In this document: positions 8,123-64,000 of the stretch, in pieces
Layout: each line of letters opens with the position of its first letter
How positions within the stretch are numbered: the first letter of the stretch is position 1
Source: Parietichytrium sp. I65-24A
Taxonomy: Eukaryota; Sar; Bigyra; Thraustochytrida; Thraustochytriidae
DNA: 64,000 bases
Direction of reading: 5' to 3'
Assembly (NCBI GenBank): GCA_012862575.1
Contig: BLSF01000042.1
Location: 62,001-126,000, forward strand
Translations under genes and position numbers: made by a program
The notes under the pieces: model-generated
The model's input: only the letters and a program-made list of their open reading frames with translations
The model's database searches: none
What the model was told of the DNA's origin: nothing

Positions 8123-11100
8123 ATGAAGTTCGTAAAGAGCGCGAGCGAATTGGTGCGCCGCATTGAAGACAACGACGAGGAGGTGTCCTGGACCGAAACT
8201 ATCCCTAAGAGGGTGGATGCAAGCGACTGGCAAGGAATACTTCGCGCGCTAGAGAGGAGCGGGACGCTGAGGGTGCTAAAGCTGGTAAATATTCAAATCC
8301 TCGACAAGGGGTGCGCAGAGTTGTTGTGCAGCTTACCGCCCTCTCTCCACACGCTCGCCATTTGCGCCAGCGGCATCACCAACGAAAGCTGTCGCAACAT
8401 CCAAGAGTTCCTGCAGAAGAAATGGACTCTACAGAAGCTTAGGTAAGTCAGTTTGTCATCTCGCAAATCTTGACAGATATCGGCTAATCTTTTTCTGCAG
8501 CGTTGAGCAAAACAGCATCGATGGTGCGGGCATCCAGAGCATCTTAGAAGGAGCGAAGAAATACAGAACCCTTCAGACTCTCCGATATGATAAAGCAATA
8601 CTCTCCTCGGCTCAAAGAGAGGAGGTTGCGAGAATCTTGAAAGCGTTCCAAGAAAGCCCAACAATTCAAAACACCTCGCCAAGGCCAGTTCAACTAACTT
8701 ATCGCGAGAGGGACGGAGGGGCTTCTTCAGGCCTGAGCTTGAGAGAAATTGAGCGTGTTCTGAAGAACCTAGCGCAATACTCCACCAGTGAAAAGGTTAC
8801 TGTGAGTGACCTCTTTGGCAACGAGTCGTTCATAAAAGCTGCAAGGCGTTTCCTCTCCAAAGGGGCTTTGCCATCAGGCACCAGTGCTAACGCACACGCT
8901 ACGATCAAGGGGCTGGGAATCTCTTGTTCCCTCTTCGCCTTCGTCGCACCGAAGCTTAGCTTGGCTGGCCTGGCCACCCTGCTTCAACACGGGCTACTGT
9001 TGGAGGATGACGCAGTGAGGTTCTCAGCGGCTCAGGTGCTTACTCCTTTGGCAGTAGCTGTGCATGCTGGTAACGTAGGCATCGTGAGAGAACTCCTTCT
9101 TCTCGGAGCAAACCCAAATACGGCGATAAGTTGTGAGGATGCCCCTGTTTCTCTTGCTGAGTTCGCGAGGTTTCTCGGTGAGGATAAAATTGCGGAAATG
9201 CTGAGTGTTGACGTGAGAATCGCCGCTATGTCCCTTTTGCGGGCCACAAAAGCAGGAGACCTCGAAGAAGTGAAGAGAAGTGTTGCAGCTTTTAAAATTC
9301 TTTCCGTTTCGCTGGAAGATGCCGAAAGTCTAACAACGTCAAGGACTATAGATGACAAAATGAGTCTGCTGCATCATGCTACCAACCGGGGCTTTCATGA
9401 AGTCTTGAAGGAGCTGCTTAAGCTATCCCACAAAGGAAGCAAGTTCATAGACTGCAAAAATAACAGCGGGCGGACGCCGCTTCACCTTGCCGCGCTGCGT
9501 GGAGATTTGCTGTCAGCATACGCCCTTCTTGAGATGGGGGCTGCCATTGATGAGCAGGATAATGACCTGCAAACCAGTGCAACTCTTGCCTGTGAGTATG
9601 GCAAGTATGAAATGGCCAAATTTCTTGCACAGAAAGGGGCGAGCTTTTCCGTCTTAGACAAGAACAAAAACACAGCGTTCAAAGTGCTTCTTGATCAAAA
9701 TCAAAGATCTGTTGCCGAGGAGATTATATACATTTTGAAGAGCGTTGATCCTGGAAGGGTTGCTGAACTCCGCTGGAACCAGTGGAGTTGTCACCACCCC
9801 AGGAAGATCCGCGCTTCAGTTCCAGTTATGAAAGGTTCGAGCGTCGAAAAGCTTGTCGAAAGGATCAGATGCGGCGGAGCTGGCGAAGCCTCAAGCGGGC
9901 CGTCTCTGCAAGACTTGACGTCCCTGCTGGGGGAAGAGAGCGTCAATTTTCCGGACCAAGTCATCCTACGAGCCCTCGCATATTTATCCCTTCCACATAT
10001 TGTAGAGGTGAGCGATATTGCAGCCGAGCTACGAGCCTACGATGCACAGTCTGGACCAATGTCCCCTCTTGTCTTGCTTGCTCATGCTCGCTACCAAGAG
10101 CGTGTGGGGGACCAAGAAGCCCAAGTCATGCTTTTACAAAAGTTTCGAGAATTTGAGAAGGATTCAGACTCGTGGCTCTCCCCCACCGAGACAAATTTGC
10201 TCTCCAGAGTTACCAACAGAAACAGAGGGTCGAGGGAAGCCGAGACCGTGCTTTCAAAAGCAGAGGAGCTCAGTGCGACCTGGAAGGAATACGAAGAGTT
10301 GAAAAGTAGACTCACAATCCCGCAGCAGGAGCCGCTAGATGAGCTGATGAAGATGGTCGGTATGGAGGACGTGAAGCAGCTTGCTCTTCGATTCTACACG
10401 GACAGTCTCGCTGACAAGTATATGATCGACAAGGGATTTCCAGAGTCGGTGTCGCCTCGAGTCCTCAATTTTTTGTTTTTAGGGAATCCAGGCACTGGCA
10501 AAACTGTCACAGCAGAGCTGTTTGGTAGGCTTCTCGATCAATCCGGGGCAAGGGCGGGCCACAAATTCATAAAGGTAACTGCTGCCGAGGCATTGAGAAA
10601 GGGGGCCAAGCAATTCGCAGCAGAGGTCGCTAGCCTGACGGGCGGCCGGCCGGGGATCGGACCTCCGGCTGAGAAAGTACTTCGAAGAGGGATGGCTGTG
10701 GAAGTCAAGGATAATTTCGGAAAGCACTTTCCTGGTAAAGTTTCGTTTGTGGACTACGATAAAGAGTTGTACAGCATTGACTACGCTGATGGTACCGTAG
10801 AGGAGAGAGTTGAGCGCAGAAGAATCACGGCCATCAGTGAAAAGAAAAGTGTCGGCGGAGTCCTGTTCGTGGACGAAGCGTACGACCTAGACCCTTTGAA
10901 CAATTCGGAAGGCAGAGCTATCATGAACGAGATCATGTCTGTTGCAGAAGAATTTCGCGATACTGTGACGATCATTTTGGCCGGCTACAAAGAAGACATC
11001 GAGTCCAAATTGGTTCGATTCAATCCGGGAATCGCCTCTCGTTTCCAGCCAGTTCATTTCAGTGACTTTACTGAGCCACAGCTTGGAGAAATTTGGCGCA

Positions 11101-13490
11101 AGAATTGCTCGGAGAAACGCTACTCCTGTGACGAGTTTGTAGTGAAGGTTGCTTCGAGAAGACTTGCGCGTGGCCTTGGACGCAAGGGCTTTGGTAACGC
11201 CCGCGAAACTCGGAAACTCTTTGAATCATCGACCAGCTTCGCAAAAGAGAGATTCTTCCGGGGAGAGGATCGGCAGCCAACCATCAAGGTGGAGGATGTG
11301 ATTGGGAAAAAACCGTCTCGGCAGGTCAACGCCGATGTTGACATTGCGCTAAGAGAATTGGAGAGGCTGACCGGATTGCAATCCGTCAAAGACTCCGTGA
11401 CTCAGCTTCTAATTATGGCGGAGGCCAACTACGAGAAGGAACTGCGCGGGGAACCGATTGACCTAATCAAACTGAACAGTTTGTTTGTCGGCAACCCAGG
11501 GACAGGTAAGACCACAGTTGCGAAGATTTATGGGAAAATTCTGAAAGCCCTCAGGTACCTCTCCGACGGCGAACTGATGCTCAAAGTGGCCTCTGATTTT
11601 ATTGGGGACAAAGTCGGTGAGACGCAATCAAAAACGCGGGCTATATTGGAAGCTGCCGAGGGAAAGGTGCTCTTCATAGACGAAGCCTACGTTCTTGATG
11701 ATCAAATTTATGGGAAACAAGCCCTTGATACGATCGTAGAAAAGGTCCAGGCTACACCTGGTGCAGACTTGGCGGTCATCATGGCGGGCTATAAACAACC
11801 CATGCTCAAAATGCTGAGGGATCAGAACCCGGGACTTTCCTCGCGCTTTGATCCCAAATTTGCCGTTGAATTCGAGGACTTTACCGACTCCGAGCTATTG
11901 GAAATTGTGTCATCGATTGTATCGAATGGTCCGGTGGAGATGCCTATAAGGGTGAAACTTCACATGGTGAGAGAGTTAGCCAAACGCCGCGCTTTGCCAA
12001 ATTTTGGGAATGCTAGAGCTATTGACACTGTACTTGCAAACGCCAAGGGCCGAAGAGAGAAACGGCTTACAGAAGACCCGTCTGGCCCACAAACTTTCAT
12101 TGAGCATGACGTCGACCCGGATCTTGCGGACCAAGATCCTCAAAGCGCACTTCAAGAACTTCAAAAATTTGGCGTTGTCGCAGACGAACTTCGTGAGCTT
12201 GGACTTATCGTTCAGCAAGCTCGTCGAGAGGGGGGGTCGCTTGACGGCTTGATCGGCCACTATGTGTTTCTTGGTCCGCCAGGGACGGGGAAGACAACCG
12301 TTGCCAGACTCCTTGCCCGCATTCTCTTCTCGTATGGTATTCTCGCGACCAAGACTGTGGTAGAAACCTCTGGAACAGATCTAGTTGCTGGGTACGTCGG
12401 CCAGTCACGCGAAAAGATGCAAAAGAAAATGGAGGAAGCCCGTGGCGGGGTTCTTTTTATAGATGAGGCATACTATCTCACAGGAAACGGGTACTCGAGT
12501 GAGATTCTTGGAACGCTTTTAAATAACTTGACCTTGCCAGAATACATGGACGGGAAAACGGTGGTTGTTCTTGCAGGGTATCAAGATGAATTGCACAAGA
12601 TGCTTGGTGAGAACCCCGGGCTCAAGTCGCGCTTCACGTCGTACATCGCATTTCACAATTTGACACCCCTAGAGTGTTTTGAAGTTGTTGAGCAGCATTT
12701 GGAACAGCGGCAACCTTTCGGATTAAAATTTGGCGACTTGAGAGCTTCCAAAGATTTGCTCCTCGATGCCTTTGGCAAGTTACAAGAGATGCCTGGGTGG
12801 GCAAACGGTCGCGATGCTGTGGAGATGGCGAAGAAGATTTACCTCAGACGAACATGTCGGCTTGGGAATTCTCCCCAAGACAACTCTACCGAGATTGTAA
12901 CTCCAGAGGACATTCAGCAGGCTTGCGACGTATTCCTCCAGAGTAGGCATGCAAGTGCCGACTCTGAAAATGGGCCTTGTTGCCACGTGGCCGTACAACC
13001 ACTTCAATACGCTGAACAAAACTCTCACATAGAGATTCTCGCTCAAAGAGAAAACAAGGCCAGACGCAGAAGTTCTCCACCACCACCGCCACCGCCTGAC
13101 TCTCAATCACAGGCCATGGAGCTTGAAGCTAGTGAGCAACAAGACAAAGATCGTCAGCGCACATACGAAGACGAACTACAGGAAAGGCTCGAGATGGACG
13201 ATTTGGAAGAGTCTTATCGCCGTGCACTGGAGGAGGAGCTCAGGCGCCTGAAAGAGCTTGAAGAGCGAGCTCGCAGACTGAGAGTAGAAGAACGACAGCG
13301 CCTTTTGGCTCAGGAGCGGAGGCGTCAAGCAATCATTCGAAAGCTTGCGAGAATAGGCCGATGCCCAGTTGGTTTCGCGTGGCTTCGGCATGGCAATGGC
13401 TTCGTTTGCGCTGGAGGCTCGCACTATGCATCCGCATCAAGTTTGGGTCTTCAAAGCGGCGAGCTTGACGAGCTATTTCCGACCGCTTGA
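8123..13490 (+). CDS. LRR-like/ankyrin protein with three CbxX/SpoVK-type AAA domains
   Basis: Exons are 8123-8442 and 8501-13490. The 58-nt intron has GTAAGT and a pyrimidine tract ending in CAG, and the split codon gives AGC. The protein is 1769 residues. The N-terminus (about 30-150) resembles ribonuclease-inhibitor leucine-rich repeats. Ankyrin repeats lie at about 290-505. Three AAA modules follow, with Walker A at 768 (GNPGTGKT), 1104 (GNPGTGKT) and 1365 (GPPGTGKT), each followed by a DEAY Walker B and an NPG-SRF finger, so all three look active. Module 1 carries an extra ~67 residues with a Tudor-like look (about 837-884). The tail has a proline run, an E/R-rich coiled coil (about 1650-1720) and a small Cys/Gly motif (CPVGF to CAGGS). 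An in-frame ATG at 7979 would add 48 poorer residues, so 8123 was chosen. The cellular role is unknown; the family remodels protein complexes. Confidence 0.9.
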
Positions 13491-38359: not shown

Positions 38360-41300
38360 ATGTCCGGGTCGCCCGGGAGGAAGAAGAAGAAGGGCGTGGT
38401 GGCGTGGCGCACGCAGTCGTTGTCAAGGTGAGTGTCAAACAAGAGAGATTTGGAGAGAGAGAGAGATGTGTGAAAGAAAGTTCCTGCGTGTATGGACATG
38501 TATGGACATGTATGCGCATGTATGCGCATGTATGGGCATGGCGTTTGCTTTTGCTTTTGCTTTTGCAAGAAGTGGGGCGAAGAGTGGGAAGAGGGGACGG
38601 AATCGCGAGATTTTGTGTTTGTGTGCAGGTTTGCTAACTTGAGAGATGGTGGGTGATTTTTCTTTGATGAATGTGATTGGATTTGCATGGAAATGCTGCT
38701 GTCGCGGGGCGAAATTGAATTGTATTGAATGGACTATGAATCTGGGAGCCGGTCTTGTTGTGTAAAGACGGAAAGCTGCGAGAGAAGCTGCACCCGAGTA
38801 TGAGTTGTGCGCGCTGGAAGGTATACTGGCAAACGTGAATGCCCAGGCGGGCAGACGGAGAGAAGTCAACGCAGATCCCAGCGAAACAGAAACGAGGCCG
38901 TCGCTTGCAGAAGTAGGGCCTCAAGACTCTGGCGAGAACCAGGAAGAGGGGAAGCGTTTGTTGCAATCCTGGCTGACCTTGTCGGAAAACCGAAAAAAAC
39001 GGCGCAAAGACATGGGCTCTTCCGAAAAGGAGAAAATGGGCCCAACAAAAGAGGTTGTCAAAAATTTAGCCGACGAATTTGACAACCTGGAAACTGGCCA
39101 ACAGACCGACAAGATGTTACAAATAATTGAGGAGTTAGAATCAAGCATGAGCGGGCCGCCCGACCCAATCTCTGCGAGCCACGATACATTTGAAGGTAAA
39201 CCGATTGCGAGAGCTCAGTCCTTCGAACCGCAGACGACGAAGGAGTCCCTTGTTTCGAACGCTGTCAGGCAAATGCAAGAGGTAGGAAATGCTCAATGTC
39301 TCCGAAAAAGACCGGCGTCAAAAGAGGAGATTGAGGCTAAGAGGAAAGCGGCGTTCAAGCGCAGGCAGCTCAATATGCAACAAAAAGGCTCTCGAAAAGC
39401 TGCGGATCCACTTCAACATAACCTAATGCCAACGTCTCTCAAGCGCATTTCCGTTGACCCACCACCGATGCGCAAATCAGCTTCTGCTCCAACGTTGCAA
39501 TCGTTTGACAGAAGCCAACCGGCAAAACCACCTACCACCATCTCACACACGACCACCCAAAACCCCCTTCAGAATCTGTCACAAGGCCGTCACTTGAGTG
39601 TGGAGGACGATGATGATGACGACGATCTCTTTGACATGCTAGCGTCCAAGATTGCTGACAAGTATGACAAGTCGCTAAAGACACAAGTCGCAAGTACTAC
39701 CATTGCGCCGAATACGAGTTCTCCAGTGGGCGGCAAAGATCTGCACGTTTCCGCAGTAGACGACCTATCTACGCCCCTCGCGAGCTCTCAAACAGACTAT
39801 GCGGCCCTCTCGCGCACCTTGCCTCCCAGAAGCTCGTCCATGGTGAAAGACGAGAGCAAGTCTTTCAACCGATTCAAAGTTCTCTCTTGCACAAATGGTC
39901 CAGAGGGATCGCTTCTGTGCGACCTAACGAGTCGGCCGGGAAGCCAAGCTGCACGTTTAGAGCTCAGGGGCTGGTGGACGGAAGTGGCTCCGAAGACTGG
40001 AGACTACCTAAACATTATTTGGACCACTTTGGCAAGACCTGAATGGAAAAGTGGAGAACCGATCATTGTCGATGACCAGCAAAATTTCGTTGTTTTGTGT
40101 CCTGATCTGCTGATCTCTCCGACCCGCATTGCCGGAGCGCTTGCGTGCAAACGGAGAGCTATCCTCTCCGATCACGTGGTAAGTTAGCTCGCACTTTGAG
40201 CAGCACTAGTCAAAGTACGTTGGAGTTCATGTTCTGATTATTTCTGTTCATTTTTTCCAAATGTGGCGCCAGCAATCCTTTCAAGCAACAAAGCACACTG
40301 CGCTAGGGAACGCCAAGCATAGCCTCGTAGAGTCGGCGCTCTCTCCAACTGACGAGGCATACTTAGGGAAACCATGCTTTGAATCAAATTATCTTGTGAG
40401 TTGGCCCAAGTGAAAAACAAATCAACTCGGAAAAAAGTCGCTAACGAACCTGTTTCCACAATCTGCATTTATAGACTGGTGTCATTAGTTGTATTGTGAA
40501 TACCCCGGGGATGCGTGAGCAGCTTTTCAGCGTCAATATGACGGAAGAGGAAGCAGCGGAAGGTCTTCATGAGCTTATTCCTGCCCTGCAAATGATGAAC
40601 TCAACATTTTTCGAAACGCTGGGAGACGGAGGGGTAATAGATCTCAGCGAAGGCCGTTCTGGAGCTTTGTGTGTAGAAAGCGTAGTGGCAACCGAAGAAA
40701 AGATCATTTCACCAAAGTGGGGGATCCGCGGACAACCCGATATCCTAGCCAGGGGCAATCTCACTTTCATGCCAGGTCCTGGAACCCAAGCGCAGACGTT
40801 CAGGAACGTAATGTTTCCAATCGAGCTTAAAACTGGGAGTGCACAGCACATGGCGCACATGGCTCAGATCCAGCTGTATTCGCTGCTCCTTGACGATAGG
40901 TACGACGGCGACCACATTTTTGGCCGGGACGACCTCCTAGCTCATCTGTCTGGTATTTTGTTGCACATTACTAAGCAAAAGGCCGGAGAGTTGGCCGGCT
41001 CTCAAGTTGCAACTCTGCGCGGAGTACCTCTGAAACATGTGCTGTTGTCAAGTCTTATCAATATTAGAAACGCTGTCGCGGCAAACTCTGCTCCACCATA
41101 TTTACGAGGGTCCACAGATCGGACGACGGCCAACGGAGACTCCGCAAAGGAGAAGCATGAGAGCCAGGCACCTGTAAAGGACGTGGTCTCCAAAGAGAGC
41201 AGCGCTCGGACAAAAGACTTTGATATTGAAGACCTGTTGCCTCCTCCATTGCCGGCTGTACTTGGCAATGCGAGCAACATCTGCGAAAATTGCTTTGAAA

Positions 41301-43603
41301 AGAGCTCGTGCATGACCTTTCATCGTGCGACCGAGAATGGAACAGCTGAATCAAGCGGTCTGAGCAAGGACACATTCGACGAGCTTGTTGGACATCTTTC
41401 TGACTCCGACATGCAGTATTTTCGAGACTGGAGTAAGATGATCGATCTTGAAAATGCCTCGAGCATGGGGTACATGCGAGAGATTTGGACTCTCAGTGGG
41501 GTCGATCGCGAGTCCAAAGGTAGATGCATTTCTTCCATGAGGTTGGTTCGGACAACACTCGAATCCACCTCCGCCGCACAGCAAGAGTACATCTCAGAAT
41601 TTGAGCGTGTGGCTTCTCGCGTTCGTTTGCACGAGTTGGAATCCATATCAGAGCTCCCGTTCGAGTGCGGAGATTTTGTGACGATCAGTATTGAGGCAGT
41701 ACACCACGGTGTTGGGGGCGGATTTTTGTCTGAGATCACCCCAACTAAAGTATTTGTGCGATCTCATCACCCGCTCAAGGTGCCAATGGAAGGAGATGTT
41801 AGCAAATTTATATGGCGAATCGACAAGGACGATTTGTTTTTCGGAATGAGGGCGGTGAAGAACAATTTGGTGTCTCTTTTGGACATTGACAATACTCAGC
41901 TTCGGAGGATAATCGTTAGTCTGGTGCCGCCTAGATTTGTTGACGACGAGCAGGGCATTGAAGCTTCGAAGGGAAGGCCAAATCCAGCAACGACTGGTTG
42001 GTTGCGGAAAATAGAAAAGCTTCCCGCTTGCTTATGGAGTGGCCGCTACAAGTTAAGGGACGTCCGCGATCACCAGAAAATGACTGCACTGGTCAATCTC
42101 GAGAGAAGGCAGCAGGAGAAGAACAATGTGATCACATCTCGAAGTGAAAAGCAACTTCGTCTGATGGATCAATACGACCGTTTAAACCCGGATCAGCGCA
42201 AAACAATCCATACTATCCTCTCTGCCAAAGACTACGTGTGTGTTCATGGGATGCCCGGAACGGGGAAAACAACCACTATTGCGTTTTTAGTTCAAGCCTT
42301 GCAAGTTATGAAGTGCTCGGTGCTCGTTTGCGCCTACACTCATACTGCACTGGATAACCTTCTGGTGAAGTTGCAAGCGGAGGGGCTGGAATTTTACCGC
42401 ATAGGCAATGCATCCACGGCGCATCCTCAGGTCCACCCAAACTTGCTGCAGGCGCAAGAGCGTTCGGTCCGAGACTTGCAAAAGATTGCCAACGACCCGC
42501 AGCTAGTACTAGGCGCAACTTGCCTCTCTGCAGTTCGACATCCCCTCATACAAAAACGCAAATTTGACTTTTGCATCGTGGATGAGGCAGGCCAGCTCAC
42601 ACAACCGGTTTGTTTTGGGCCGCTGTCATTCGCGAACACCTTTGTTTTAGTTGGCGACGACCGGCAGCTCCCCCCGTTGGTGAAGAGCACGCACGCGAAA
42701 AAACTCGGAATGGACGTGTCCCTACTCCAGCGTCTCTCAAGTGCACAGCCTCAAAGCGTTTCCGCGCTAACCTTGCAGTTCCGAATGAACCAGGACATCA
42801 TGGATTTGGCAAATCATCTAATTTACAACGGGGCACTCACGTGTGGTGACAGCTCCGTGGCAACCCAGCAACTCCAACTTACCCGAGACATAAACGAAGT
42901 GACTGCGCAGTACAAGGATTCTCCGAGCGCTTGGGTTCGCGAAGCGCTAGATCCTAATCGTGGAGTCGTGTTTCTGAACACGGACAATCTCATCACCGGC
43001 GGTGCAGTAGAGCGCAGGTCTGCTGTGCGCCAGCGCCGATCATACTTGGAAAAGGGTTCCACGGGTCAAAATGTGATCGTCGTCGAGGAAGGTGACCTGT
43101 GCTCACAATCACAATCTCAAGCCCAGCCGGAAGGTGCCGTGCAGAGCCCCTCGAAGGACAAGCGCGTCAAAGGAAAGCTGGAAAACGATGCTGAAGCGGT
43201 GGTGACGAAAGGCCTTATAGACACGCTGGTAGCGTGCGGAGTGAAACTTTCGCAAATAGGTGTGATATCCCCTTACCGGTCCCAGCTTCGCCTTTTAAAT
43301 GCGTACCTAGCAAAGTACATCCCGCAGCTTGAGGTTCAGACCGTTGATCGGTACCAGGGGAGGGATAAGGACTGCATTGTCATCTCTTTGGTGAGGTCTA
43401 ACGCGCAGAAGGAGATCGGTTTCCTCTTGCGAGATTGGCGAAGAATAAATGTTGCTTTCACACGTGCCAAGTGCAAGCTATTGGTCATCGGTTCGCGCAA
43501 GACTTTAGAAGACAGCCCACTTTTTGAGTCCTTTCTAACGCTCGTTGAGGAGAAGGGTTGGTATACTTCGCTTCCTGAGAACGGTCATTTGGGCTTTGCT
43601 TAG
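38360..43603 (+). CDS. DNA2: DNA2 nuclease-helicase
   Basis: Proposed exons are 38360-38427, 38768-40178, 40273-40395 and 40475-43603, giving 1576 residues. Exons 2-4 join in phase at clear GT-AG sites. The first (22 codons, Lys-rich) and its 340-nt intron are less certain. Dna2 marks: the first Fe-S Cys in CKRRAIL (about 483), nuclease GIRGQPDI (about 616) and IELKTG (about 650), and the CENCFEKSSC cluster (about 804-813) that completes the 4Fe-4S site. The superfamily-1 helicase has GMPGTGKTTT (about 1126), DEAGQL, GDDRQLPP, QFRMN, VDRYQGRD and VAFTRAK. It should trim Okazaki flaps and resect double-strand breaks in the nucleus. The N-terminal ~400 residues are disordered, with an acidic DDDDDDD run. 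The length is close to the yeast protein. Confidence 0.93.
38491..38570. repeat. TATGNNCATG 10-bp repeat plus (CTTTTG)n in DNA2 intron 1
   Basis: Five tandem 10-mers (TATGGACATG twice, TATGCGCATG twice, TATGGGCATG once) are followed by about four CTTTTG units. Confidence 0.9.
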
Positions 43604-45060: not shown

Positions 45061-45086
45061 GCGAGGACGCTTGGGTGTACGCGCTT

Positions 45087-45163
45087 GAGTGACTGAGTGA
45101 CTGAGTGACTGAGTGACTGAGTGACTGAGTGACTGAGTGACTGAGTGACTGAGTGACTGAGTG
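45087..45163. repeat. (GAGTGACT)9 octamer array
   Basis: About nine perfect copies, followed by degenerate GTGAGTGATT and, at 45259-45283, GATT tetramers. Confidence 0.95.
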
Positions 45164-45479
45164 TGTATGGAAGAGTGTGAGTGATTGTTTGTGATTGATT
45201 GAGTGAGTGTCGATGGAAGTATGTGAGTGATTGTGAGTGAGTGAGTGATTGTGTGAGTGATTGATTGATTGATTGATTGATTGTGTGAGTGAGTGTGTGT
45301 GTGAGTGAGTGAGTGTGTGAATGTTTGCGGGAGGATTGGAGTAAGGCTCTTGGAGTGCCCAGCGCCCAAGATCAGTCTGCGATGGTGGTCGACTACTGAT
45401 GGGTGATTGTTTGTTTTTGTCGCTCCGTTCACTGGCAGGCTGGTACGTTGCGAGCGCTGGGTTCAAGTTCTGGAGCAAT

Positions 45480-50002: not shown

Positions 50003-52196
50003 ATGCGTCGCGTGGAACGCGTGCTGGCGCACCTGGAGCAGGGCGGCAACAGCGCCGAGAGAAATGAAAATGATAATGAAATTGGAAATGGAAGCGGGAA
50101 GGCGAGCTTGGAACGGTGCGAGACTCGGTCGGTGTCGGAGTGGGTCGGAGACCTGGCGGCCATGGCGACGAAGAATGTGGTGATGACCGAGCGCCACGGA
50201 GGCGACCTGGTGGCGGAAGTGCTGGTCGCCCACGGCGTCAAACACCTCTTCTGCTTGAGCGGAGGCCACATCAGCCCCTTCCTGGTCGCGTCCAAGGAGC
50301 GCGGCATCAAGATTGTGGATGTGAGGCACGAAGTGAATGCTGTCTTTGCCGCGGACGCGGTGGGGAGACTGACAGGGATTCCTGGCGTCGCGGCGGTGAC
50401 TGCTGGTCCTGGCGTCACAAACACGGTTACTGCCATCAAGAACGCCGCGATGGCGCAAAGCCCAATGGTGCTCCTGGGTGGTGCAGCCGCCACGGTGATG
50501 CAGGGCCGCGGCGCGCTCCAGGACATTGACCAGATGGCGTTTCTCACTCCCATTGTAAAGTGGGCGTACTCGTGCCGGACAGCTCGCGACATTGTCCCGA
50601 CGCTGCGCAAAGCATTTCAGATTGCTAAGAGCGGCACCCCTGGGCCAGTGTTTGTGGAGCTCCCGCTTGACGTTCTGTACAGCGTGATGGAGCTCTTACC
50701 CCAAAGTGGAGCACACGAGCGGTTGCGGGCGAAAGAACTTCAAGGCGGCAAGGCTTCAGCGGACCAGCTCGCTCGAGTTGTCATCACGCGCGAGGCCGCC
50801 AAGAAGAAGATGTCAGCAAAAGAGTTTGTGGACAGCAAACCTCCTGATTCCCCGGTGTTCTTGGAGCTCCCAGCGGACAAGAAGGGGCCGCTACTTGTTC
50901 GCACAGCGTTTGGGGCTCTTCAGGCCAGACTCCATGCCGGGGCGCACGATGTTGACTACGACTTTTCACCTCTTCCAGTAGACTACCCAAAGCCAAATGC
51001 TGGCGACTTGAAGACTGCGGCCGAGTATTTGAAGAAGGCCAAGCGTCCTGTGTTTATTCTCGGGTCCCAGTCCATGCTGCACGGACAAGACGGCGCGAAA
51101 AAACTCGTTTCAGCCCTCGAGAAGCTTGGAGCGCCCTGCTTCTTGGGCGGAATGAGCAGAGGTCTTTTGGGCCGCAACCATCCTCTCCATATCCGCCAGA
51201 ATCGCGGAAAGGCTCTGAATAGCGCCGATGTAATCATCATGCTCGGAGTAGTTGCTGACTTTCGCCTTGATTATGGGCGTGGACTTCCTGGCAAAGTTCC
51301 GATCGTCGCGGTCAACCGGTCGAAAGACGATTTGAAGCTAAACTCTGGAATTTTCTGGAAACCTACGTGTGCAGCGAACAGCGATCCGTGCGACTTTGCG
51401 GTGGAGCTTGCGAAGTTGGTGGGCTCCAAAGCAGCGTCATGGAGTTCCTGGGCTGCTCAACTGAAGAAAGGCGATGAGGCCAAGGAGCTAGCGAATGCCA
51501 AGCTTGCTGCGCTTCCAGCATTGGGAAGGAACGGTTATGCTGGCAAGCCTTTGGTCAACCCTCTGGAGCTCTGCCAGCGATTTGACAATGTGCTAGAAGA
51601 CAACAGCATTCTGGTGGCGGATGGAGGGGACTTTGTTGCAACTGCATCCTACATCGTCCGACCTCGCGGACCGCTCTCGTGGCTTGACCCTGGCGCTTTT
51701 GGCACACTTGGAGTCGGTGGTGGATTCGCACTGGGTGCCGCCCTGGTGCACCCTGAAAAGCAGGTTTACATTCTCTGGGGCGATGGCAGCGCCGGTTACA
51801 GCATCATGGAATTTGACACCTTTCGCCGTCACGGCCTAAATGTCATCGCACTCGTTGGTAATGACGCCTGGTAAGTTGCGTTTGCCTTTTATTGGAACAA
51901 CATATTCTTCTTCTCTCTGACAAGATTTGGCCCTTCTCTACTCCCGCAGCTGGACTCAAATTGAACGGGAGCAGGTTCCCATGTTTGGTGATGACGCTGC
52001 GTGCGTTCTTGACTACTCGGCGTACGACGTCTGCGCAGAGGGTCTTGGAGGACGATCAGTCCGTCTCGAGTCGCCGGACGATGACCTTGAGTCCAAATTC
52101 CGAGAGGCACAGTCGGTTGCCAGAGAAGGAAACCCAGTCCTCATCAATGCACTCATCGGCCGCACCAGTTTCCGCGAAGGTTCCCTTTCGGTGTAG
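50003..52196 (+). CDS. ILVBL: ThDP-dependent enzyme of the ILVBL/2-hydroxyacyl-CoA lyase type
   Basis: Exons are 50003-51870 and 51950-52196, with a 79-nt intron; the split codon gives Cys in GNDACWTQ. The protein has 704 residues. The first ATG is 50003; an ATG at 50162 would remove ~53 low-complexity residues. The ThDP family order is clear. The pyrimidine-binding domain has the cofactor-activating Glu in VRHEVNAVFAADA (about E109) and the AGPGVTNT and GQGRGALQD segments. A central domain follows. The pyrophosphate domain has GDGS...ND (about 593-623). WTQIEREQVPMFG after the splice is typical of ILVBL (acetolactate synthase-like, 2-hydroxyacyl-CoA lyase 2). In animals that enzyme is an ER protein of fatty-acid alpha-oxidation. 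A ~50-residue insert near 245-295 makes it longer than usual. Confidence 0.88.
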
Positions 52197-52531: not shown

Positions 52532-54301
52532 TTAGTGCCGATGTCCATGGCCGTGGCTTCGCTGCTCTTCTGCCCGCCTGACTCGCTCCTCGATCGCCGA
52601 CTTGTCATAGCCTTGATCGTAAAGTTTGCGCGTGAAAGCGTTGCCGAGTATTTCAAGCGCTTCTCCAAGTAGTTTGAAGTGCTCCTCGGACTGTTTCCTT
52701 TCCTCGACTGTTGCCTGTGGACCCAATTTGTCTGGATGGCAGGCAAGGGCGCGCTGCTTATACGCTGCTTTAATTTCCAGCTCGCTGGATACTGAGCTGA
52801 GTTGATGGCCATCGGGTTGGCTCAGAATCTTGTAATAGTCCGGCCGTTTCGCTTTGCGGGCCTCGAACTCCACCATGTCGTAAGCGCCACGAATCACATT
52901 GTTATTCTGCCCCCATTCCGTCATCAGTCTATTGGCATCTTGTTGTGCCTCGGTAAATCGTTGCAGCGCAACAAGGACATAAAGGCGAGTGAGCCAAGCG
53001 CGTTGATTATCCTCCTGTAAATAAATTGCGCTCGCACAATCCTTGAGCGCAAGATCGTACTCCTTGAGCCGAAAGTGTACGTTTCCAAGCTCTGACAGAA
53101 TGATTGCGCGTACGATGGCCTTGGACGGAATGGCATTCGAGTCGCAGTCCTTGATTAGTTCAGAGAGGACTTGTGCGGCCTTTGTGTAATCTTGTTTTGA
53201 GGTGAGGTCTCGCGACTCGTTCAACTGATTACGAATCAGCTTGATCTTCTTGAAGCACTTCATCGCCTCCTTATCATCCGGCGCCAATCGCAAGGCTTCT
53301 TTGACATACTTTACAGCTTCCTCCACTTCGCCAGAGTAAAGCATGGCTAGCGAGCGGACCACATATGCTGCCGGGTCACTTCCGCCATTCGCGCGAAGGA
53401 CTTGCAGAGTCAGCTTCAATGCTCGTTCGCAGCTGCCCACCTCGGCCTCGGCTCGGGCTGCCACGAGCAAAACGCGAGGGGCTGTAGTTGTCGTTAGAAG
53501 CTGAGTACACGAGGCTCGCGCAGATACATAATCCCCTTTTCTGACAGCTTCCTGCGCCGCACCAAAGCTTTGCGCGAGCGCCTTGACCTGACGAGTAGCT
53601 GCAAGCAGGTTGTGGTCTGTCTGGTCCGAGCATTCTGCGAGATACGCAGCGGCATCCTCAAAGCGCCCTAGTGACACCAACGCTTTCGCGCCTCGGACAA
53701 AGGCTTTACAAAAGCTTGGATCTAAACTGGTGGCCTTTCTGCAATCCTGCACAGCAGCTTCCTGATTGCCTAGTGCGATGAAAGCTGCAGCGCGATTCGA
53801 ATAGATACTAGGGACATCTTCGCAGAGCGAGATCGCTTTGTTGTACAGAGTAATCGCGTCCTTAAAATTTCTCGACTCGTATTTTTCATTGGCCTGCTCC
53901 TTAAGCACGAGCGCCATGTCCTTCGCGCTTTTTGAGCCAGCCTCTTGATGCTCCGTCGCGGACACCAAGTGCGACTGAAGATCGGCATAGTCACCTTCCC
54001 ATCTGCACTTGGCCGCATCTTGCAGCGGGCATCTGACCCTGATCCTCCCCAACACCCGCCATGCCAGTGGGCTCCCGTACTTTAGATACGGCATTTGCCC
54101 TGAAAGCACTGTCCCAAGGTCATTTTGGCATGTCGGGCAGGTCATTTTCCTCTGAAGCCAATTCCTCAAGCAGGAAAGGCAATACACATGCGAGCAGCTC
54201 GTCAAGATGGACTCGTCCAGGTCCACCAGCTGCACACATATCGCGCAAACAAACTCCTCATAGTGTCCCTTCGCAGACAATATCTCGCCGCCGAAACCCA
54301 T
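52532..54301 (-). CDS. RING finger-TPR-DnaJ fusion protein
   Basis: The ATG at 54301 opens 589 residues without introns. A C3HC4 RING finger (about 17-59) starts CAIC, continues CSHVYCLSC and ends CPTC. It is followed by a TRAF/SIAH-like Cys-His segment (CPLQDAAKC...H...H, about 88-117). TPR repeats fill about 125-470, with NRAAAFIALGN and SELGNVHFRLKEYDLALKDC among them. The C-terminus is a J domain (about 488-565) with an intact HPD (522-524), then a basic and His-rich tail. TPR-J alone is DNAJC7/DNAJC3-like: TPR holds Hsp70/Hsp90 tails and J stimulates Hsp70. Adding a RING suggests a chaperone-linked E3 ubiquitin ligase, comparable in logic to CHIP. That function is inferred. Confidence 0.9.
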   Translation of the reverse strand: MGFGGEILSAKGHYEEFVCAICVQLVDLDESILTSCSHVYCLSCLRNWLQRKMTCPTCQNDLGTVLSGQMPYLKYGSPLAWRVLGRIRVRCPLQDAAKCRWEGDYADLQSHLVSATEHQEAGSKSAKDMALVLKEQANEKYESRNFKDAITLYNKAISLCEDVPSIYSNRAAAFIALGNQEAAVQDCRKATSLDPSFCKAFVRGAKALVSLGRFEDAAAYLAECSDQTDHNLLAATRQVKALAQSFGAAQEAVRKGDYVSARASCTQLLTTTTAPRVLLVAARAEAEVGSCERALKLTLQVLRANGGSDPAAYVVRSLAMLYSGEVEEAVKYVKEALRLAPDDKEAMKCFKKIKLIRNQLNESRDLTSKQDYTKAAQVLSELIKDCDSNAIPSKAIVRAIILSELGNVHFRLKEYDLALKDCASAIYLQEDNQRAWLTRLYVLVALQRFTEAQQDANRLMTEWGQNNNVIRGAYDMVEFEARKAKRPDYYKILSQPDGHQLSSVSSELEIKAAYKQRALACHPDKLGPQATVEERKQSEEHFKLLGEALEILGNAFTRKLYDQGYDKSAIEERVRRAEEQRSHGHGHRH

Positions 54302-59465: not shown

Positions 59466-62400
59466 ATGGCGCAGCGGCGGAATCTCAGGGCGGAGATCCT
59501 CGCGTGCGAAGAGGCTGGCCACGTCAATCAGCGCACAAGGGCGCTCTCGAAACTGACCAAGGCGCGAATGGCGAGCAGCAACATGCGAGACGCCGTGCGC
59601 AAGCCGCAAAGGGCCTCGTTGAACGACTGGATCGCCTCCAACTTGGTCGACTTTTACAACTCGATGGTGCGTTTCTTCAAGCTCTGCGTGGATGACGCCA
59701 ACAAATACACTTCTCCCGGCGATGGGTTCCCGCCGCGTTTCGAGTACCGTTGGCCTAACCCTTCTGGCAGACCCACGCAGTGCACTTCCACGGATTATGC
59801 GCTGAATGTCGTACGATGGATAGCGTCCAAGCTGGGTTCCGGCATGTTTCCCGCGGATGCGGATCAAGAGTTCAGCCGCGAGTTTGATAATTTCGCCTCA
59901 AAGGCATTCACCAGGATCTTCAGGGTCTTTGCGATCATATATCACGGGCACTTTGCAGTTATCGAGGCGCAGAACGCCGCTATTGAGCTGAACAGTGTCT
60001 TTAAGCACTTCTTTTTCTTCACACTGGAGCACGGTCTCGTCGAATCAAGGGAGTATATGGCTCTCGGGGAACTCTGCGAAAAACTCGAAGAGATGTACAA
60101 TATGGATATTCCAGAGTCTAAAGCCCGCGATCAAGACCGCGCCAACCAGCGCGGCGCGCGCACCCCAAAAGGTGCGTTCCTTCAAAAGCAGCCTGGCAAG
60201 GGCTCTGCCAAGAGTTTTGGTTCCGCCAAGAGCTTCCACTCTGCCAAGAGCTTCTCTAGTGTACCAAGCATGCCTATCTCACCGCGCCACCCAATGAGTC
60301 GCGAGTCTGGCGCGAGCCGCACTTCCACAGCCTCCAGTATCTCGCACCTCTCCTCCAGGTCGTCTCGCCCACAAACTCCAAGAGGCAGCAAGAACAAGTC
60401 CAGGGCAGAGTTTGCGCGAGTCGTCAAGCGACGCTCAGAATACCTAGACTCCATGGAGACCCTTGTAAAACGAGCAGACGTATTTGAGAAGCTAATGCAG
60501 ATTCAAGAGGAAACGGATACAATAGGGCGTGCTTGCATTGACGCTGTTCAGGAAATTTTGCATTCCGAAATGGAATTCGGAGACATGGTTTGGTCGATCC
60601 ACGACGAATACATGGTCGCCGCAAGACACTGTGGTGTATCCCCTCGAACGATATCTCGGTGCTTCGTCAATGTTGGCGAGATCTTGAGGTTTTCAGAGCT
60701 CCTCAACGTGGAGATGCACCTTGGCTTGGTAGACCGGATCACTAGCTCTTCTCACTATTCCGTGCCTGCCGTCATCAAGATCATTTCAAGCGCCATCACT
60801 CCTCAGCTCTTCTCCCTGCGCATCTACGCCAGATTCCTTGCGAATTTCGACCAAGCTGTGGAAGAGCTTGACGGTCTAATGGGAAGCAACCAGCGCTTCG
60901 CTGATATGATCAATAAGAAGAGAGACAGTATGGGGAGGACCCTCATCGAAATGCTCGATGAGATTCGTGGCCGTCCGATCCGTTTCCAATCGTCTCTCGA
61001 GGCTCTCGAGATTTCCTACAATGCTTATGTTGCTATGCAGCAAAGGGACGACCCCATTAACGAGCTCCTGGGCGGCGCGAGCAAAAGCAACTTTGTCAAA
61101 TCTGCGCACAAGCAATGGGGCGACTCTGGCGGTCAACAAATCCAGCCTCGCAACGCAGCGGGTGCGACGACCGTGCAATCCGCCCAACGAGCGCTTCAAC
61201 TTACCCGCCAAGAGTACGCCAATCAGCTCAAGATTCTGGAGAAGCGCTCGAGGGAGATGTATATTCAAGCTCTCGTTTTCACTTCAGTTTACGGCAAGGA
61301 GAACGGAAGGGTCATGCTTAAGGACCATTTGATCGGATTTGGCCCCATCGAGTATCGTGAAAGCGGGGCCGATTCCTGGACCATCGGTGATGCAATTGTT
61401 TTTCGAGACAACATCGTCATTGCCGAGAGCTCCAAAGTTCTCGCCCCAAATGCAGAGAGCCAAAGCTCGACAAAGTCCATTCTGTCTCGTGTGTCGGCTA
61501 CGGTGACCAGTCTCGCAAACGGCCGTAGACGTTCGTCTACAAATACAAATAATAGCGTGAGACAAGGTGGCAGGACTAGCGGGATCCGCCAGATGCTGGC
61601 ATCGTCTCTTGGGTCTTCCAGCAGCGGCCCATCTCCTCCTGAGCCACAGAGAATTTCCTTCACGCGGCCAGAGGCTTCAGCGGCGAAGAAGAAGGCCCCC
61701 AAGGTTGTTATCAAAGCACAGTTCAACGTCGACGCATGCTCGATATCTACTGAGCAACTTCGCCATGCGAGGTATCGTGCATCGGAGGGCAAGTACGCCG
61801 TGCGGATGACACACGTCGTAAAGAAAGGAACGGCCCAAGTGGCGCAATTCCGTACCACAAGCGCCGACCTTGCCACCTCTCTGTTTCAGTTTGTCAACAC
61901 CCCTGTTCCGCAGCGTCTATTCTCTCACCTGGTGGCATTTGAGGACCTCACAAGCGATCGAAGCGAGTCGCGAGTGGAGGCCGAGGAAGTGGAGGGTAGC
62001 AGAAGTAACAACAACAATGACTCGCGACTGGCGTTGCTGAGAAGGCCAGCCAAGAAAGGCGAAGTGGCGCCGCAAAGCCCTGGCGAAAAGAAACCAGAGG
62101 TGCTGGGAGCCCGGCCAGATGATCACTATGATTTTTTTATTTCATACCACTCGAGCACTGCAATTGACGAAGCTCTCTCGCTTTACCTTGACTTGAAGAA
62201 CCAGGGTTTCCGCGTCTGGCTTGACAAAACGGTCGAAAACGACCTTCCGAATGCACAAGCGATGCATGATGGCATTCGGAAATCCAAAGTATTTCTTCTT
62301 TTGTTGAAGAGCGGAGCTCTCCTGCGCCAGTGGGTGCAGTCTGAGGTCCGAGAAGCAAGACGTTTGCAAAAGCATGTGGCGGTTATCTACGAGGGTGACT

Positions 62401-62660
62401 ACAGCACAGAGCCTCGCGGCAGTGGGAAAGGTAGCGGACAAGGTTCTTCCATACAGTCCTCCTCCTTAGGCAAGGGCGAGTTACCCGAATACACTGCTGA
62501 CAGGTCTCTGATCCCGCAAGACATCGCCCAGCTCTTTGACGAGATATCTGCCGTCCCGCTCCAAACTCTCGGGAAACGGAGGACAGCCATGTGGGAAATG
62601 GTGTTGCGCCAGCTGCACCTGGACCCTCCCCGGCAAAAGTCTGGTATTTTGTTCCTTTGA
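59466..62660 (+). CDS. Mob1-RhoGEF/PH-like-TIR multidomain protein
   Basis: The ATG at 59466 opens 1064 residues without introns; upstream codons of the frame start only at a TTG. A Mob1/phocein domain covers about 52-215 (LNDWIASNLVDFYN...FEYRW...IFRVFAIIYHGHF...VFKHFFFF). Two of the four usual zinc ligands look replaced. A Ser-rich linker (about 239-318) repeats SAKSF. A helical domain (about 319-512) resembles a DBL-homology RhoGEF, with RYARFLANFDQA-type and RPIRFQSSLEAL segments. A PH-like region follows (about 599-808). The TIR domain is at about 885-980: YDFFISYHSS, then SGALLRQWVQSE with Glu960 at the place of the SARM1 catalytic Glu. Mob1 proteins activate NDR/LATS kinases. TIR domains signal or cleave NAD. 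The combination is not one I know. Confidence 0.85.
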   Translation: MAQRRNLRAEILACEEAGHVNQRTRALSKLTKARMASSNMRDAVRKPQRASLNDWIASNLVDFYNSMVRFFKLCVDDANKYTSPGDGFPPRFEYRWPNPSGRPTQCTSTDYALNVVRWIASKLGSGMFPADADQEFSREFDNFASKAFTRIFRVFAIIYHGHFAVIEAQNAAIELNSVFKHFFFFTLEHGLVESREYMALGELCEKLEEMYNMDIPESKARDQDRANQRGARTPKGAFLQKQPGKGSAKSFGSAKSFHSAKSFSSVPSMPISPRHPMSRESGASRTSTASSISHLSSRSSRPQTPRGSKNKSRAEFARVVKRRSEYLDSMETLVKRADVFEKLMQIQEETDTIGRACIDAVQEILHSEMEFGDMVWSIHDEYMVAARHCGVSPRTISRCFVNVGEILRFSELLNVEMHLGLVDRITSSSHYSVPAVIKIISSAITPQLFSLRIYARFLANFDQAVEELDGLMGSNQRFADMINKKRDSMGRTLIEMLDEIRGRPIRFQSSLEALEISYNAYVAMQQRDDPINELLGGASKSNFVKSAHKQWGDSGGQQIQPRNAAGATTVQSAQRALQLTRQEYANQLKILEKRSREMYIQALVFTSVYGKENGRVMLKDHLIGFGPIEYRESGADSWTIGDAIVFRDNIVIAESSKVLAPNAESQSSTKSILSRVSATVTSLANGRRRSSTNTNNSVRQGGRTSGIRQMLASSLGSSSSGPSPPEPQRISFTRPEASAAKKKAPKVVIKAQFNVDACSISTEQLRHARYRASEGKYAVRMTHVVKKGTAQVAQFRTTSADLATSLFQFVNTPVPQRLFSHLVAFEDLTSDRSESRVEAEEVEGSRSNNNNDSRLALLRRPAKKGEVAPQSPGEKKPEVLGARPDDHYDFFISYHSSTAIDEALSLYLDLKNQGFRVWLDKTVENDLPNAQAMHDGIRKSKVFLLLLKSGALLRQWVQSEVREARRLQKHVAVIYEGDYSTEPRGSGKGSGQGSSIQSSSLGKGELPEYTADRSLIPQDIAQLFDEISAVPLQTLGKRRTAMWEMVLRQLHLDPPRQKSGILFL

Positions 62661-62955: not shown

Positions 62956-64000
62956 TCAAGCCCAGCTGTAGGCAGCTTTTCCCGCTGAAAATGGATGAGG
63001 CCCAGCAAGATCAAGGCGCATGTCAAAGCAGTTCTCGACTTGCTCTTCGGTTCCCACAACAAATAACTGTGTCGTTGTGGAGTGCAACGTGAGTAGTGGA
63101 GTCGGGACCTTTGAAGTTGCTGATCGCGGAATTGCCAGGAGGTGTGTCGGTGGTCGAACGTGCAACGTAATAACATCGCCCAAGAATATGGGCAGGTGCG
63201 AAAGGTCTACCTCATAGTTGGCGAGACTGAAATCGTCATCTTTTGTGTTCACACGGTCGTTATCGTGCGAGCCTTGCATCACCATGACCGAGGAGCCCGA
63301 TATGGAAATCTTCCAATCTACACCGGCGACTCTGTGATGAAACTTGGACTTATCTAAAACAACCCGCCCGTCTAGGGTTTTGATGCACGCGTTCCACCGA
63401 AGCTTCAATTTTCCCCATCTCGTTCCGCTGTGCACGTATATCTCATGCATCCGAGTGTAGATGTTGGCAGTGTGCTGATTGCTCACGCAGAGGAGCAGAT
63501 CATTTTCCCAATCTCTTGAGTGAAGCAAAGTGTGATGAGCCTCTATTTTTGCTGGCCCTGGCTGGAGAAAGTTACCAGCACTCCCCGTTTGGGCGTTGCT
63601 GAGAAGTCGGTTCTCCGAAAGTTCTGCAGCAGCACGCGAGCTCATCTCTGCTGATATGGTAATATTTTGCGCGAATGCGCCTTGAACTCGTTTGGGCACG
63701 GGAACCGAATGCTGAAGCTCAAACATACCCAGCTCCACAAGGATTTGATCTCCGGGGAGCCAGCCTTTTGTTCGAACGCGATAGTGCTGCCAAACTCGTA
63801 TTCGGTCCGCCTGGACCATCGAATTTACAACCGATACATTCTCTGTTGCATCACCAGCAGCAACGACTTCGAATTCGGGGGCATCGAATGGGCTCTCCTG
63901 TCGTTTGCGCAGCACCCTCCAGTCATACGCCGGATTGATTTCCCACTCCGTCACTATTGTTGAACCCTTTTCTTTATCTTCACCCTGCTCCAGTGCACTT
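62956..64000 (-). CDS. Unrecognised protein, 5' end outside window
   Basis: An open minus-strand frame runs from the window edge to a stop at 62956, giving at least 348 residues. No plausible ATG lies in its first ~45 codons, so the start is to the right or across an intron. It looks beta-rich and soluble (alternating hydrophobic pattern, few long helices), with no membrane segment or repeat. Segments such as YRVRTKGWLPGDQILVELG and VDWKISISGSSVMVMQG suggest a beta-sandwich, but I cannot name a family. Confidence 0.65.
   Translation of the reverse strand, partial: SALEQGEDKEKGSTIVTEWEINPAYDWRVLRKRQESPFDAPEFEVVAAGDATENVSVVNSMVQADRIRVWQHYRVRTKGWLPGDQILVELGMFELQHSVPVPKRVQGAFAQNITISAEMSSRAAAELSENRLLSNAQTGSAGNFLQPGPAKIEAHHTLLHSRDWENDLLLCVSNQHTANIYTRMHEIYVHSGTRWGKLKLRWNACIKTLDGRVVLDKSKFHHRVAGVDWKISISGSSVMVMQGSHDNDRVNTKDDDFSLANYEVDLSHLPIFLGDVITLHVRPPTHLLAIPRSATSKVPTPLLTLHSTTTQLFVVGTEEQVENCFDMRLDLAGPHPFSAGKAAYSWA

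What the first reader, a model, noticed from the sequence alone, without database searches (positions are those of the whole stretch)
59466..62660. Mob1 + RhoGEF/PH-like + TIR in one protein
Mob1 is normally a stand-alone ~210-residue adaptor of NDR/LATS kinases. Here it is the N-terminus of a 1064-residue chain ending in a TIR domain whose SGAL...WVQSE segment resembles SARM1, with Glu at the catalytic position. A fusion of this kind could tie Hippo/NDR or Rho signalling to NAD cleavage or TIR assembly. The domain matches are read from the sequence; the functional link is inference. The frame is continuous, so the fusion is not a gene-model artefact.
Basis: partly seen in the sequence, partly recalled or inferred. 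Interest (0 to 1): 0.85.

Follow-up and report, generated by a model that had tools for sequence, protein, structure and literature searches.

The report
Mob1, DH-like and TIR domains fused
One open gene of an unidentified eukaryote joins a Mob1 adaptor, a divergent Rho-activator-like domain and a TIR domain that keeps the residue other TIR enzymes use to cut NAD, a combination that could tie cell-shape signalling to NAD destruction but is untested.

Summary
One open frame (59466-62660, +, 1064 codons, TGA stop) encodes Mob1_phocein (residues 33-198, Pfam E 5e-37), RhoGEF/DH (361-513, E 3e-7) and TIR_2 (890-976, E 2e-11), all above Pfam's cut-offs. An AlphaFold model of the TIR part with 45 bacterial homologues has a confident TIR core; its best PDB matches are C. 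elegans TIR-1 and human SARM1. E960 of W956-xxx-E960 aligns with the catalytic glutamate position and is Glu in 45 of 46 aligned TIRs. The Mob1-DH linker is stop-free, and its repeat units differ mostly at third codon positions, so it looks translated.

Corrections: the Mob1 part has lost three of four zinc ligands. The DH match is weak and the CR3 motif was not found. No search supports a PH domain. By sequence, SARM1 is no closer than bacterial or plant TIRs. No NDR consensus site was found.

Most likely this is a TIR effector or assembly module under a degenerate Mob1 adaptor and DH-like module. The architecture is solid; the mechanism is inference. No genome, transcripts or orthologues were available. 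A new combination of known domains.

The parts
59466..62660 (+). open reading frame, 1064 aa plus TGA stop: Mob1 - Ser-rich linker - DH-like - region with a Ser-rich insert - TIR
59562..60059 (+). Mob1/phocein domain, residues 33-198; zinc ligands C79, C84, H161 of human MOB1A replaced by A78, S83, I157; H166 kept as H162
   Evidence: E 5.1e-37; MOB1A E 3.1e-30; residue map
60099..60419 (+). Ser/Arg-rich linker, residues 212-318; disorder is inferred from composition
   Evidence: composition, repeats; coding signal negative at 269-308, positive again from 309
60201..60254 (+). three in-frame 18-nt units encoding (G/H)SAKSF; units 1 and 2 differ at four sites, all third codon positions; unit 3 differs from each at four sites, two of them third positions
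60172..60358 (+). best of three weak donor/acceptor pairs in the linker (one GTGCGT donor; acceptor after CTCTCCTCCAG; 187 nt); if spliced, a 264-aa Mob1-only product
   Evidence: no transcript evidence
60546..61004 (+). divergent RhoGEF/DH domain, residues 361-513 (profile 2-150 of 180); CR3 motif not found
   Evidence: (E 3e-7)
61260..61973 (+). region after DH proposed as PH (residues about 599-836), with a Ser-rich insert at about 655-752; PH not confirmed
   Evidence: no PH match; model unusable
62133..62618 (+). TIR domain: Pfam residues 890-976; model continues to a helix ending near residue 1051, there at low confidence
   Evidence: (E 2e-11)
62331..62345 (+). W956-xxx-E960 in predicted helix C, the position of the catalytic glutamate of NAD-cleaving TIRs

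Best explanation
A real multidomain signalling protein of a eukaryote. SHOWN by computation: Mob1, a divergent DH-type domain and a TIR domain lie in one frame that looks translated throughout, and the TIR part keeps the predicted fold core and the WxxxE glutamate. INFERRED: the Mob1 part, having lost most of its zinc site, works as a docking platform for an NDR-type kinase or another phosphoprotein. The DH-like part and the region after it place the protein at a membrane or on a Rho-type GTPase, perhaps without exchange activity. Clustering through these parts brings TIR domains together, so that the TIR part assembles and cleaves NAD(+) or makes an ADP-ribose signal, as in SARM1 and in bacterial and plant TIR proteins. 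It is then an effector switched by polarity or cell-cycle type signals rather than a classical Hippo adaptor or RhoGEF.
For: Domains. Mob1 identity to solved MOB1A; 63 of 181 aligned residues identical. TIR fold: of nine 10-residue blocks over segment residues 11-100, eight at pLDDT 85-93 and one at 70; 41 PDB chains at E <= 0.001, best TIR-1 1.9e-6. E960: six of six TIRs in A1, 45 of 46 in A3. Dependence of most bacterial TIR NADases on the WxxxE glutamate: PMC11374754 (passages). Divergence of the other parts: three zinc ligands lost, although H161 and H166 are kept in all 81 MOBs compared in PMC7761452 (section 19 and table passage); CR3 not found. Continuity.
Against: No biochemical, expression or orthologue evidence. 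NAD cleavage cannot be told from sequence: WxxxE is also described in TLR2 (PMC4203976, passages). The Arg after FISYx found in 40 of 46 aligned TIRs is Ser here (only one other row has His before it or none), and the BB-loop region aligns only with gaps. W956 itself is Trp in only 3 of 46 rows (Tyr in 39), so the full WxxxE is not a feature of this set. The last third of the TIR model is low in confidence. No HxRxx[S/T] NDR/LATS site in the chain (0 found, 0.31 expected in shuffles). The DH-PH model was unusable (pLDDT 36.9). A small DH profile of my own scored 9.8 bits, and one of 500 shuffles of a slightly shorter segment scored higher, 11.1.
Confidence: 0.45

Rival explanations
1. The TIR part is a non-enzymatic TIR-TIR assembly module, and the protein is purely a scaffold that concentrates a Mob1-bound kinase and a GTPase.
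For: Animal TLR-type TIRs are thought to act mainly as scaffolds (PMC13142454, passages). Mob1 and DH-like parts are binding modules; the Arg after FISYx is missing here.
Against: The glutamate is kept, and the best fold matches are the NAD hydrolases TIR-1 and SARM1.
Confidence: 0.3
2. The protein is a working Rho guanine exchange factor, with Mob1 and TIR as regulatory or targeting parts.
For: Pfam RhoGEF above the cut-off; regions like CR1 and CR2 align with intersectin and P-Rex1 in a MAFFT alignment.
Against: The Pfam match stops at profile position 150 of 180; the CR3 motif as printed for intersectin and P-Rex1 was not found by alignment or by pattern; no PH match; no PDB sequence match for this part at E <= 10.
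Confidence: 0.15
3. Two genes or isoforms, a Mob1-only product and a separate DH-TIR product, joined only in the genomic frame; or an assembly join.
For: The genome has introns (79-nt GTAAGT...CAG intron at 51871-51949, read). A weak pair at 60172/60358 would end Mob1 at 264 aa; my loose scan lists 21 weak pairs in the frame, 12 of which would shift it. Coding signal dips at residues 269-308.
Against: No GTAAGT donor inside the frame. Repeat units in the very stretch that would be spliced out differ mostly at third codon positions (4 of 4 between units 1 and 2). No stop for 106 linker codons. No raw reads to test assembly. Coding signal also dips inside the Mob1 and DH parts, so the dip is weak evidence.
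Confidence: 0.08

Closest known systems
MOB1 (human MOB1A/B), adaptor of NDR/LATS kinases
   Same: Mob fold region aligns at E 3.1e-30, above yeast Mob2 and Mob1 chains; D63, R154 and R157 kept, E55 as Asp, K105 as Arg
   Different: Three zinc ligands, E51, K153 and T35 not kept, K104 falls in a gap; fused to about 850 further residues
SARM1 / C. elegans TIR-1, NAD(+) hydrolases
   Same: C-terminal TIR with WxxxE glutamate; best structural matches
   Different: No SAM or ARM domain among the Pfam matches; by sequence no closer than bacterial and plant TIRs
Dbl-family RhoGEFs (intersectin, P-Rex1)
   Same: Pfam RhoGEF above cut-off; CR1- and CR2-like stretches
   Different: CR3 not found; PH not detected
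Eukaryotic TIR proteins of the TIR atlas, with Dictyostelium TirBCD (PMC13142454)
   Same: TIR domains found across eukaryotes, with six eukaryote-only clades that the authors call uncharacterised (section 5)
   Different: The main text does not hold the words Mob1 or RhoGEF; supplements could not be read here
Arabidopsis At.43365, listed as NBS-LRR with Mob1 (PMC3532234, table passage)
   Same: An immune-type protein paired with Mob1 in one predicted product
   Different: NBS-LRR, not TIR plus DH; may be a gene-model join (my suspicion, not tested)

Membership tests
Mob1/phocein family | Mob1_phocein profile match over the whole domain | tested here: met
   127.9 bits, profile 2-168 of 170; MOB1A E 3.1e-30
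Mob1/phocein family | Cys2-His2 zinc site (C79, C84, H161, H166 of MOB1A) | tested here: not met
   A78, S83, I157, H162. Yeast Mob2 lacks both Cys and one Naegleria gruberi sequence lacks C84 (PMC7761452), so this does not exclude family membership
MOB1-type NDR/LATS adaptor | Kinase and phosphopeptide surface residues E51, D63, K153, R154 | tested here: inconclusive
   A50, D62, T149, R150 (two of four kept); roles of these residues from PMC5612953 passages
MOB1-type NDR/LATS adaptor | Binds and activates an NDR-type kinase | not testable with these tools
   needs binding or kinase assays
Dbl-family RhoGEF | RhoGEF/DH profile above the curated cut-off | tested here: met
   31.2 bits against 27.6, profile 2-150 of 180; but my own small profile scored only 9.8 bits, with one of 500 shuffles higher
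Dbl-family RhoGEF | CR3 motif in the last third of the DH domain | tested here: not met
   MAFFT with intersectin, P-Rex1 and a recalled consensus; the alignment is uncertain there; PxQR, QRxxxY and related patterns: no match; one looser pattern matches only at 313 and 323, before the DH region
Dbl-family RhoGEF | PH domain after DH | tested here: inconclusive
   no Pfam match; single-sequence AlphaFold model unusable
TIR domain | TIR profile and TIR fold | tested here: met
   (predicted fold)
NAD-cleaving TIR | Glutamate of WxxxE in helix C | tested here: met
   W956, E960, predicted helix 955-966
NAD-cleaving TIR | Measured NAD(+) cleavage | not testable with these tools
   needs an enzyme assay
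SARM1 | ARM and tandem SAM domains before the TIR (recalled) | tested here: not met
   neither is among the eight families listed at E <= 10

The most novel reading that the evidence does not exclude
A eukaryotic signalling protein in which a zinc-less Mob1 adaptor and a Rho-linked module directly gate a TIR NAD hydrolase, so that polarity or division signals, or their disturbance, trigger NAD loss or an ADP-ribose signal: a SARM1-like executioner wired to Mob/Rho inputs.
Probability: 0.2. Interest if true: 0.85.

Novelty: new variant of a known kind. Interest (0 to 1): 0.6.

Why it matters
Mob1 proteins are usually described as small stand-alone adaptors (recalled), and enzymatic TIR domains are known mainly from immunity and axon death. 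A natural fusion of the two would show one way in which a eukaryote couples cell-shape or division signalling to NAD metabolism or TIR assembly, and it gives a concrete protein to test. A Mob fold that has lost three zinc ligands is also informative about what the zinc site is needed for.

Tried and rejected
PH domain: searched in the whole chain, in two pieces, and with the Ser-rich insert left out; nothing. Weak Methyltransf_25 matches there (E 0.007-0.19, 17.4 bits at best against a cut-off of 27) were rejected as below threshold.

DH-PH structure: AlphaFold on the single sequence failed (pLDDT 36.9); its helices-then-strands pattern is not used as evidence. No fold search was run on it.

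Relatives: the full protein, the Mob1 part and the TIR part were searched in viral contigs; no relative was found, but single-protein queries find close relatives only. The TIR part was searched in plasmids: 38 records, best E 0.04; four were fetched. A six-frame search of the window gave, beside the gene itself, only three weak matches (E 0.27-0.49), so no second copy was seen. No orthologue of the fusion was sought in eukaryotic genomes, which the genome collection does not cover. A Mob1 search of one bacterial genome rang nowhere, controls included, and shows nothing.

SARM1 by sequence: 14.5 bits at best, E 0.93 with the TIR core alone, where unrelated chains score as well. A profile of six TIRs, five of them bacterial, hits SARM1 at 4.4e-13, behind seven other chains; this says TIR, not SARM1.

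NDR site: HxRxx[S/T] (consensus from the abstract of PMC4320110 in the listing) occurs 0 times; basophilic sites are at chance level.

Defence-system models: matches to Thoeris TIR proteins, far below NCBIfam's cut-off (24.9 against 220 bits), and PADLOC matches at 1.9e-5 or weaker for the whole chain; taken as generic TIR similarity.

Bacterial promoter/terminator scan: not relevant to a eukaryote. Rfam and tRNA scans of the window: nothing.

Papers: all ten searches are. Mob1 + TIR domain + RhoGEF: 0 papers. Mob1 + TIR domain: 7 papers, of which I opened one (PMC3532234). RhoGEF + TIR domain: 17 papers, of which I opened two (PMC4203976, PMC4102429, passages). The rest were seen as listings only. 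TIR domain with thraustochytrid or Labyrinthulomycetes: 0 papers each; these group names were my guess at the organism, untested. PMC2705460 (oomycete domain fusions) has none of the four terms in its main text. PMC2684140 (Mob evolution) has none of five fusion-type terms. I opened nine papers, none in full.
Full report
WHAT IS THERE. The frame 59466-62660 on the + strand is open for 1064 codons from an ATG with a favourable context (A at -3, G at +4) to a TGA. With codon use learned from twelve other ORFs of the window, 23 of 27 forty-codon blocks from residue -11 to the end score as coding rather than non-coding; the four that do not start at residues 69, 269, 389 and 669. The block just upstream (-51 to -12) scores as non-coding. 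No whole genome is held for the window. The window holds eukaryotic genes such as a Gpi1 homologue and a Dna2-type helicase, and at least one 79-nt GTAAGT...CAG intron (51871-51949, read). The organism is not identified.

DOMAINS. Pfam finds Mob1_phocein at residues 33-198 (E 5.1e-37), RhoGEF at 361-513 (E 3e-7) and TIR_2 at 890-976 (E 2e-11), each above its curated cut-off. Seven shuffled or reversed segments gave no such match. Among solved structures the N-terminus matches human MOB1A at E 3.1e-30, a putative MOB1 (9uo7) at 1.5e-25, Mob2 of yeast at 7.6e-19 and Mob1 of yeast at 9.5e-16 (species names recalled). The DH-PH region matches no solved sequence at E <= 10.

CONTINUITY. The riskiest joint is the Ser-rich linker at residues 212-318. 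Its codons are stop-free (chance about 1.4% for 106 codons). Its three 18-nt repeat units are in frame; units 1 and 2 differ at four sites, all third codon positions, and unit 3 differs from each of them at four sites, two of them third positions. That is the pattern of translated sequence. No GTAAGT donor lies in the frame. A loose scan lists 21 weak donor/acceptor pairs in it, three of them in the linker (one GTGCGT donor with three acceptors). The best, 60172/60358, would give a 264-residue Mob1-only product; another (60172/60330) would only shorten the linker in frame. The joint before the TIR is only about 50 residues long, too short for a gene boundary (inference).

MOB1 PART. Mapped on MOB1A (63 of 181 identical), zinc ligands C79, C84, H161 and H166 become A, S, I and H. 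In the 81 MOBs compared in PMC7761452 (section 19 and a table passage) H161 and H166 are always kept; both Cys are missing in yeast Mob2 and C84 in one Naegleria sequence. That study left out sequences with under 50% identity at conserved positions, so divergent MOBs are under-represented. Residues for kinase and phosphopeptide binding are partly kept: E51 to A, E55 to D, D63 kept, K153 to T, R154 kept (roles of E51, D63, K153, R154: PMC5612953 passages). Of twelve conserved positions listed in a table passage of PMC7761452, seven are identical here (W97, F140, F144, N180, H185, E192, L207); one of the twelve, printed as A59, is V in the solved chain, so that position is unsure. This is a Mob domain closest to MOB1 with an altered zinc corner.

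DH PART. The RhoGEF match covers profile 2-150 of 180. Against intersectin and P-Rex1 sequences printed, the first helix and the F-x-N-x-x-E-I-L stretch align, but the CR3 motif does not, and patterns made from it match nowhere in the chain, save one loose pattern at 313 and 323, before the DH region. A profile of those two plus a recalled consensus scored only 9.8 bits on residues 309-640, and one of 500 shuffles of residues 309-600 scored 11.1. So the DH call rests on Pfam's richer profile. No PH was found, and the structure job failed.

TIR PART. The closest solved sequences are a bacterial TIR (E 0.0017), a plant TIR (0.0089; plant origin recalled) and AbTIR chains (0.013, 0.022); SARM1 comes at 0.23 and above, among unrelated chains. 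With 45 bacterial homologues (identity to the window TIR 21-31%), AlphaFold gives a core near pLDDT 90, but blocks of 40-72 after segment residue 100; mean 72.1, pTM 0.67. Foldseek then lists C. elegans TIR-1 (1.9e-6) and human SARM1 (1.4e-5) first, followed by plant TIRs; TM-scores are moderate (0.58 of the query and 0.70 of the target for the TIR-1 domain chain 8p2l_I). SARM1 is heavily represented in the PDB, so first place is not proof of kinship. W956-V-Q-S-E960 lies in the predicted helix 955-966. The glutamate is present in six of six TIRs and in 45 of 46. In most bacterial TIRs the NADase function depends on this glutamate (PMC11374754, passages); WxxxE is reported in SARM and in most bacterial TIRs (PMC4203976, passages), although in my set the Trp is present in only 3 of 46. 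Against activity: the Arg after FISYx, present in 40 of 46, is Ser here, and the BB-loop region aligns only with gaps.

MECHANISM. What is shown stops at architecture and residue conservation. The best reading is a TIR effector or assembly module under Mob1 and DH-like control. The Mob1 and DH parts have diverged at their metal-binding and motif positions, while the TIR glutamate is kept, which suggests that the N-terminal parts serve as binding modules. A direct NDR link is not supported by substrate motifs (0 HxRxx[S/T]).

NOVELTY. Ten paper searches (listed in Tried and rejected) turned up no Mob1-RhoGEF-TIR protein in what I saw, mostly listings. The library holds only open-licence papers, protein databases were not searchable, and supplements were closed, so unannotated orthologues may well be on deposit. 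Each domain is known; the combination looks new.

Noticed in passing
50003-52196 (+): Thiamine-pyrophosphate enzyme gene (three TPP Pfam domains) with a 79-nt GTAAGT...CAG intron at 51871-51949 (read); shows that this genome uses spliceosomal introns.
   Followed up: partly
52532-54301 (-): RING finger, TPR repeats and DnaJ domain in one 589-residue frame, an unusual E3-cochaperone-like combination.
   Followed up: no
8637-13490 (+): 1617-residue frame with ankyrin repeats and AAA ATPase modules (AAA with three stretches; CbxX/SpoVK likeness is from recall).
   Followed up: no
38805-40187 and 40496-43603 (+): The second frame is a Dna2-type nuclease-helicase; the first may be its N-terminal part across an intron or an adjacent gene (not tested).
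   Followed up: no
62956-63999 (-): Frame of 347 residues, open at the window end, convergent with the fusion gene, no Pfam match at E <= 1e-4.
   Followed up: no
45085-45320: Tandem repeats of TGAGTGAC-like units, among 42 tandem-repeat rows in the window.
   Followed up: no
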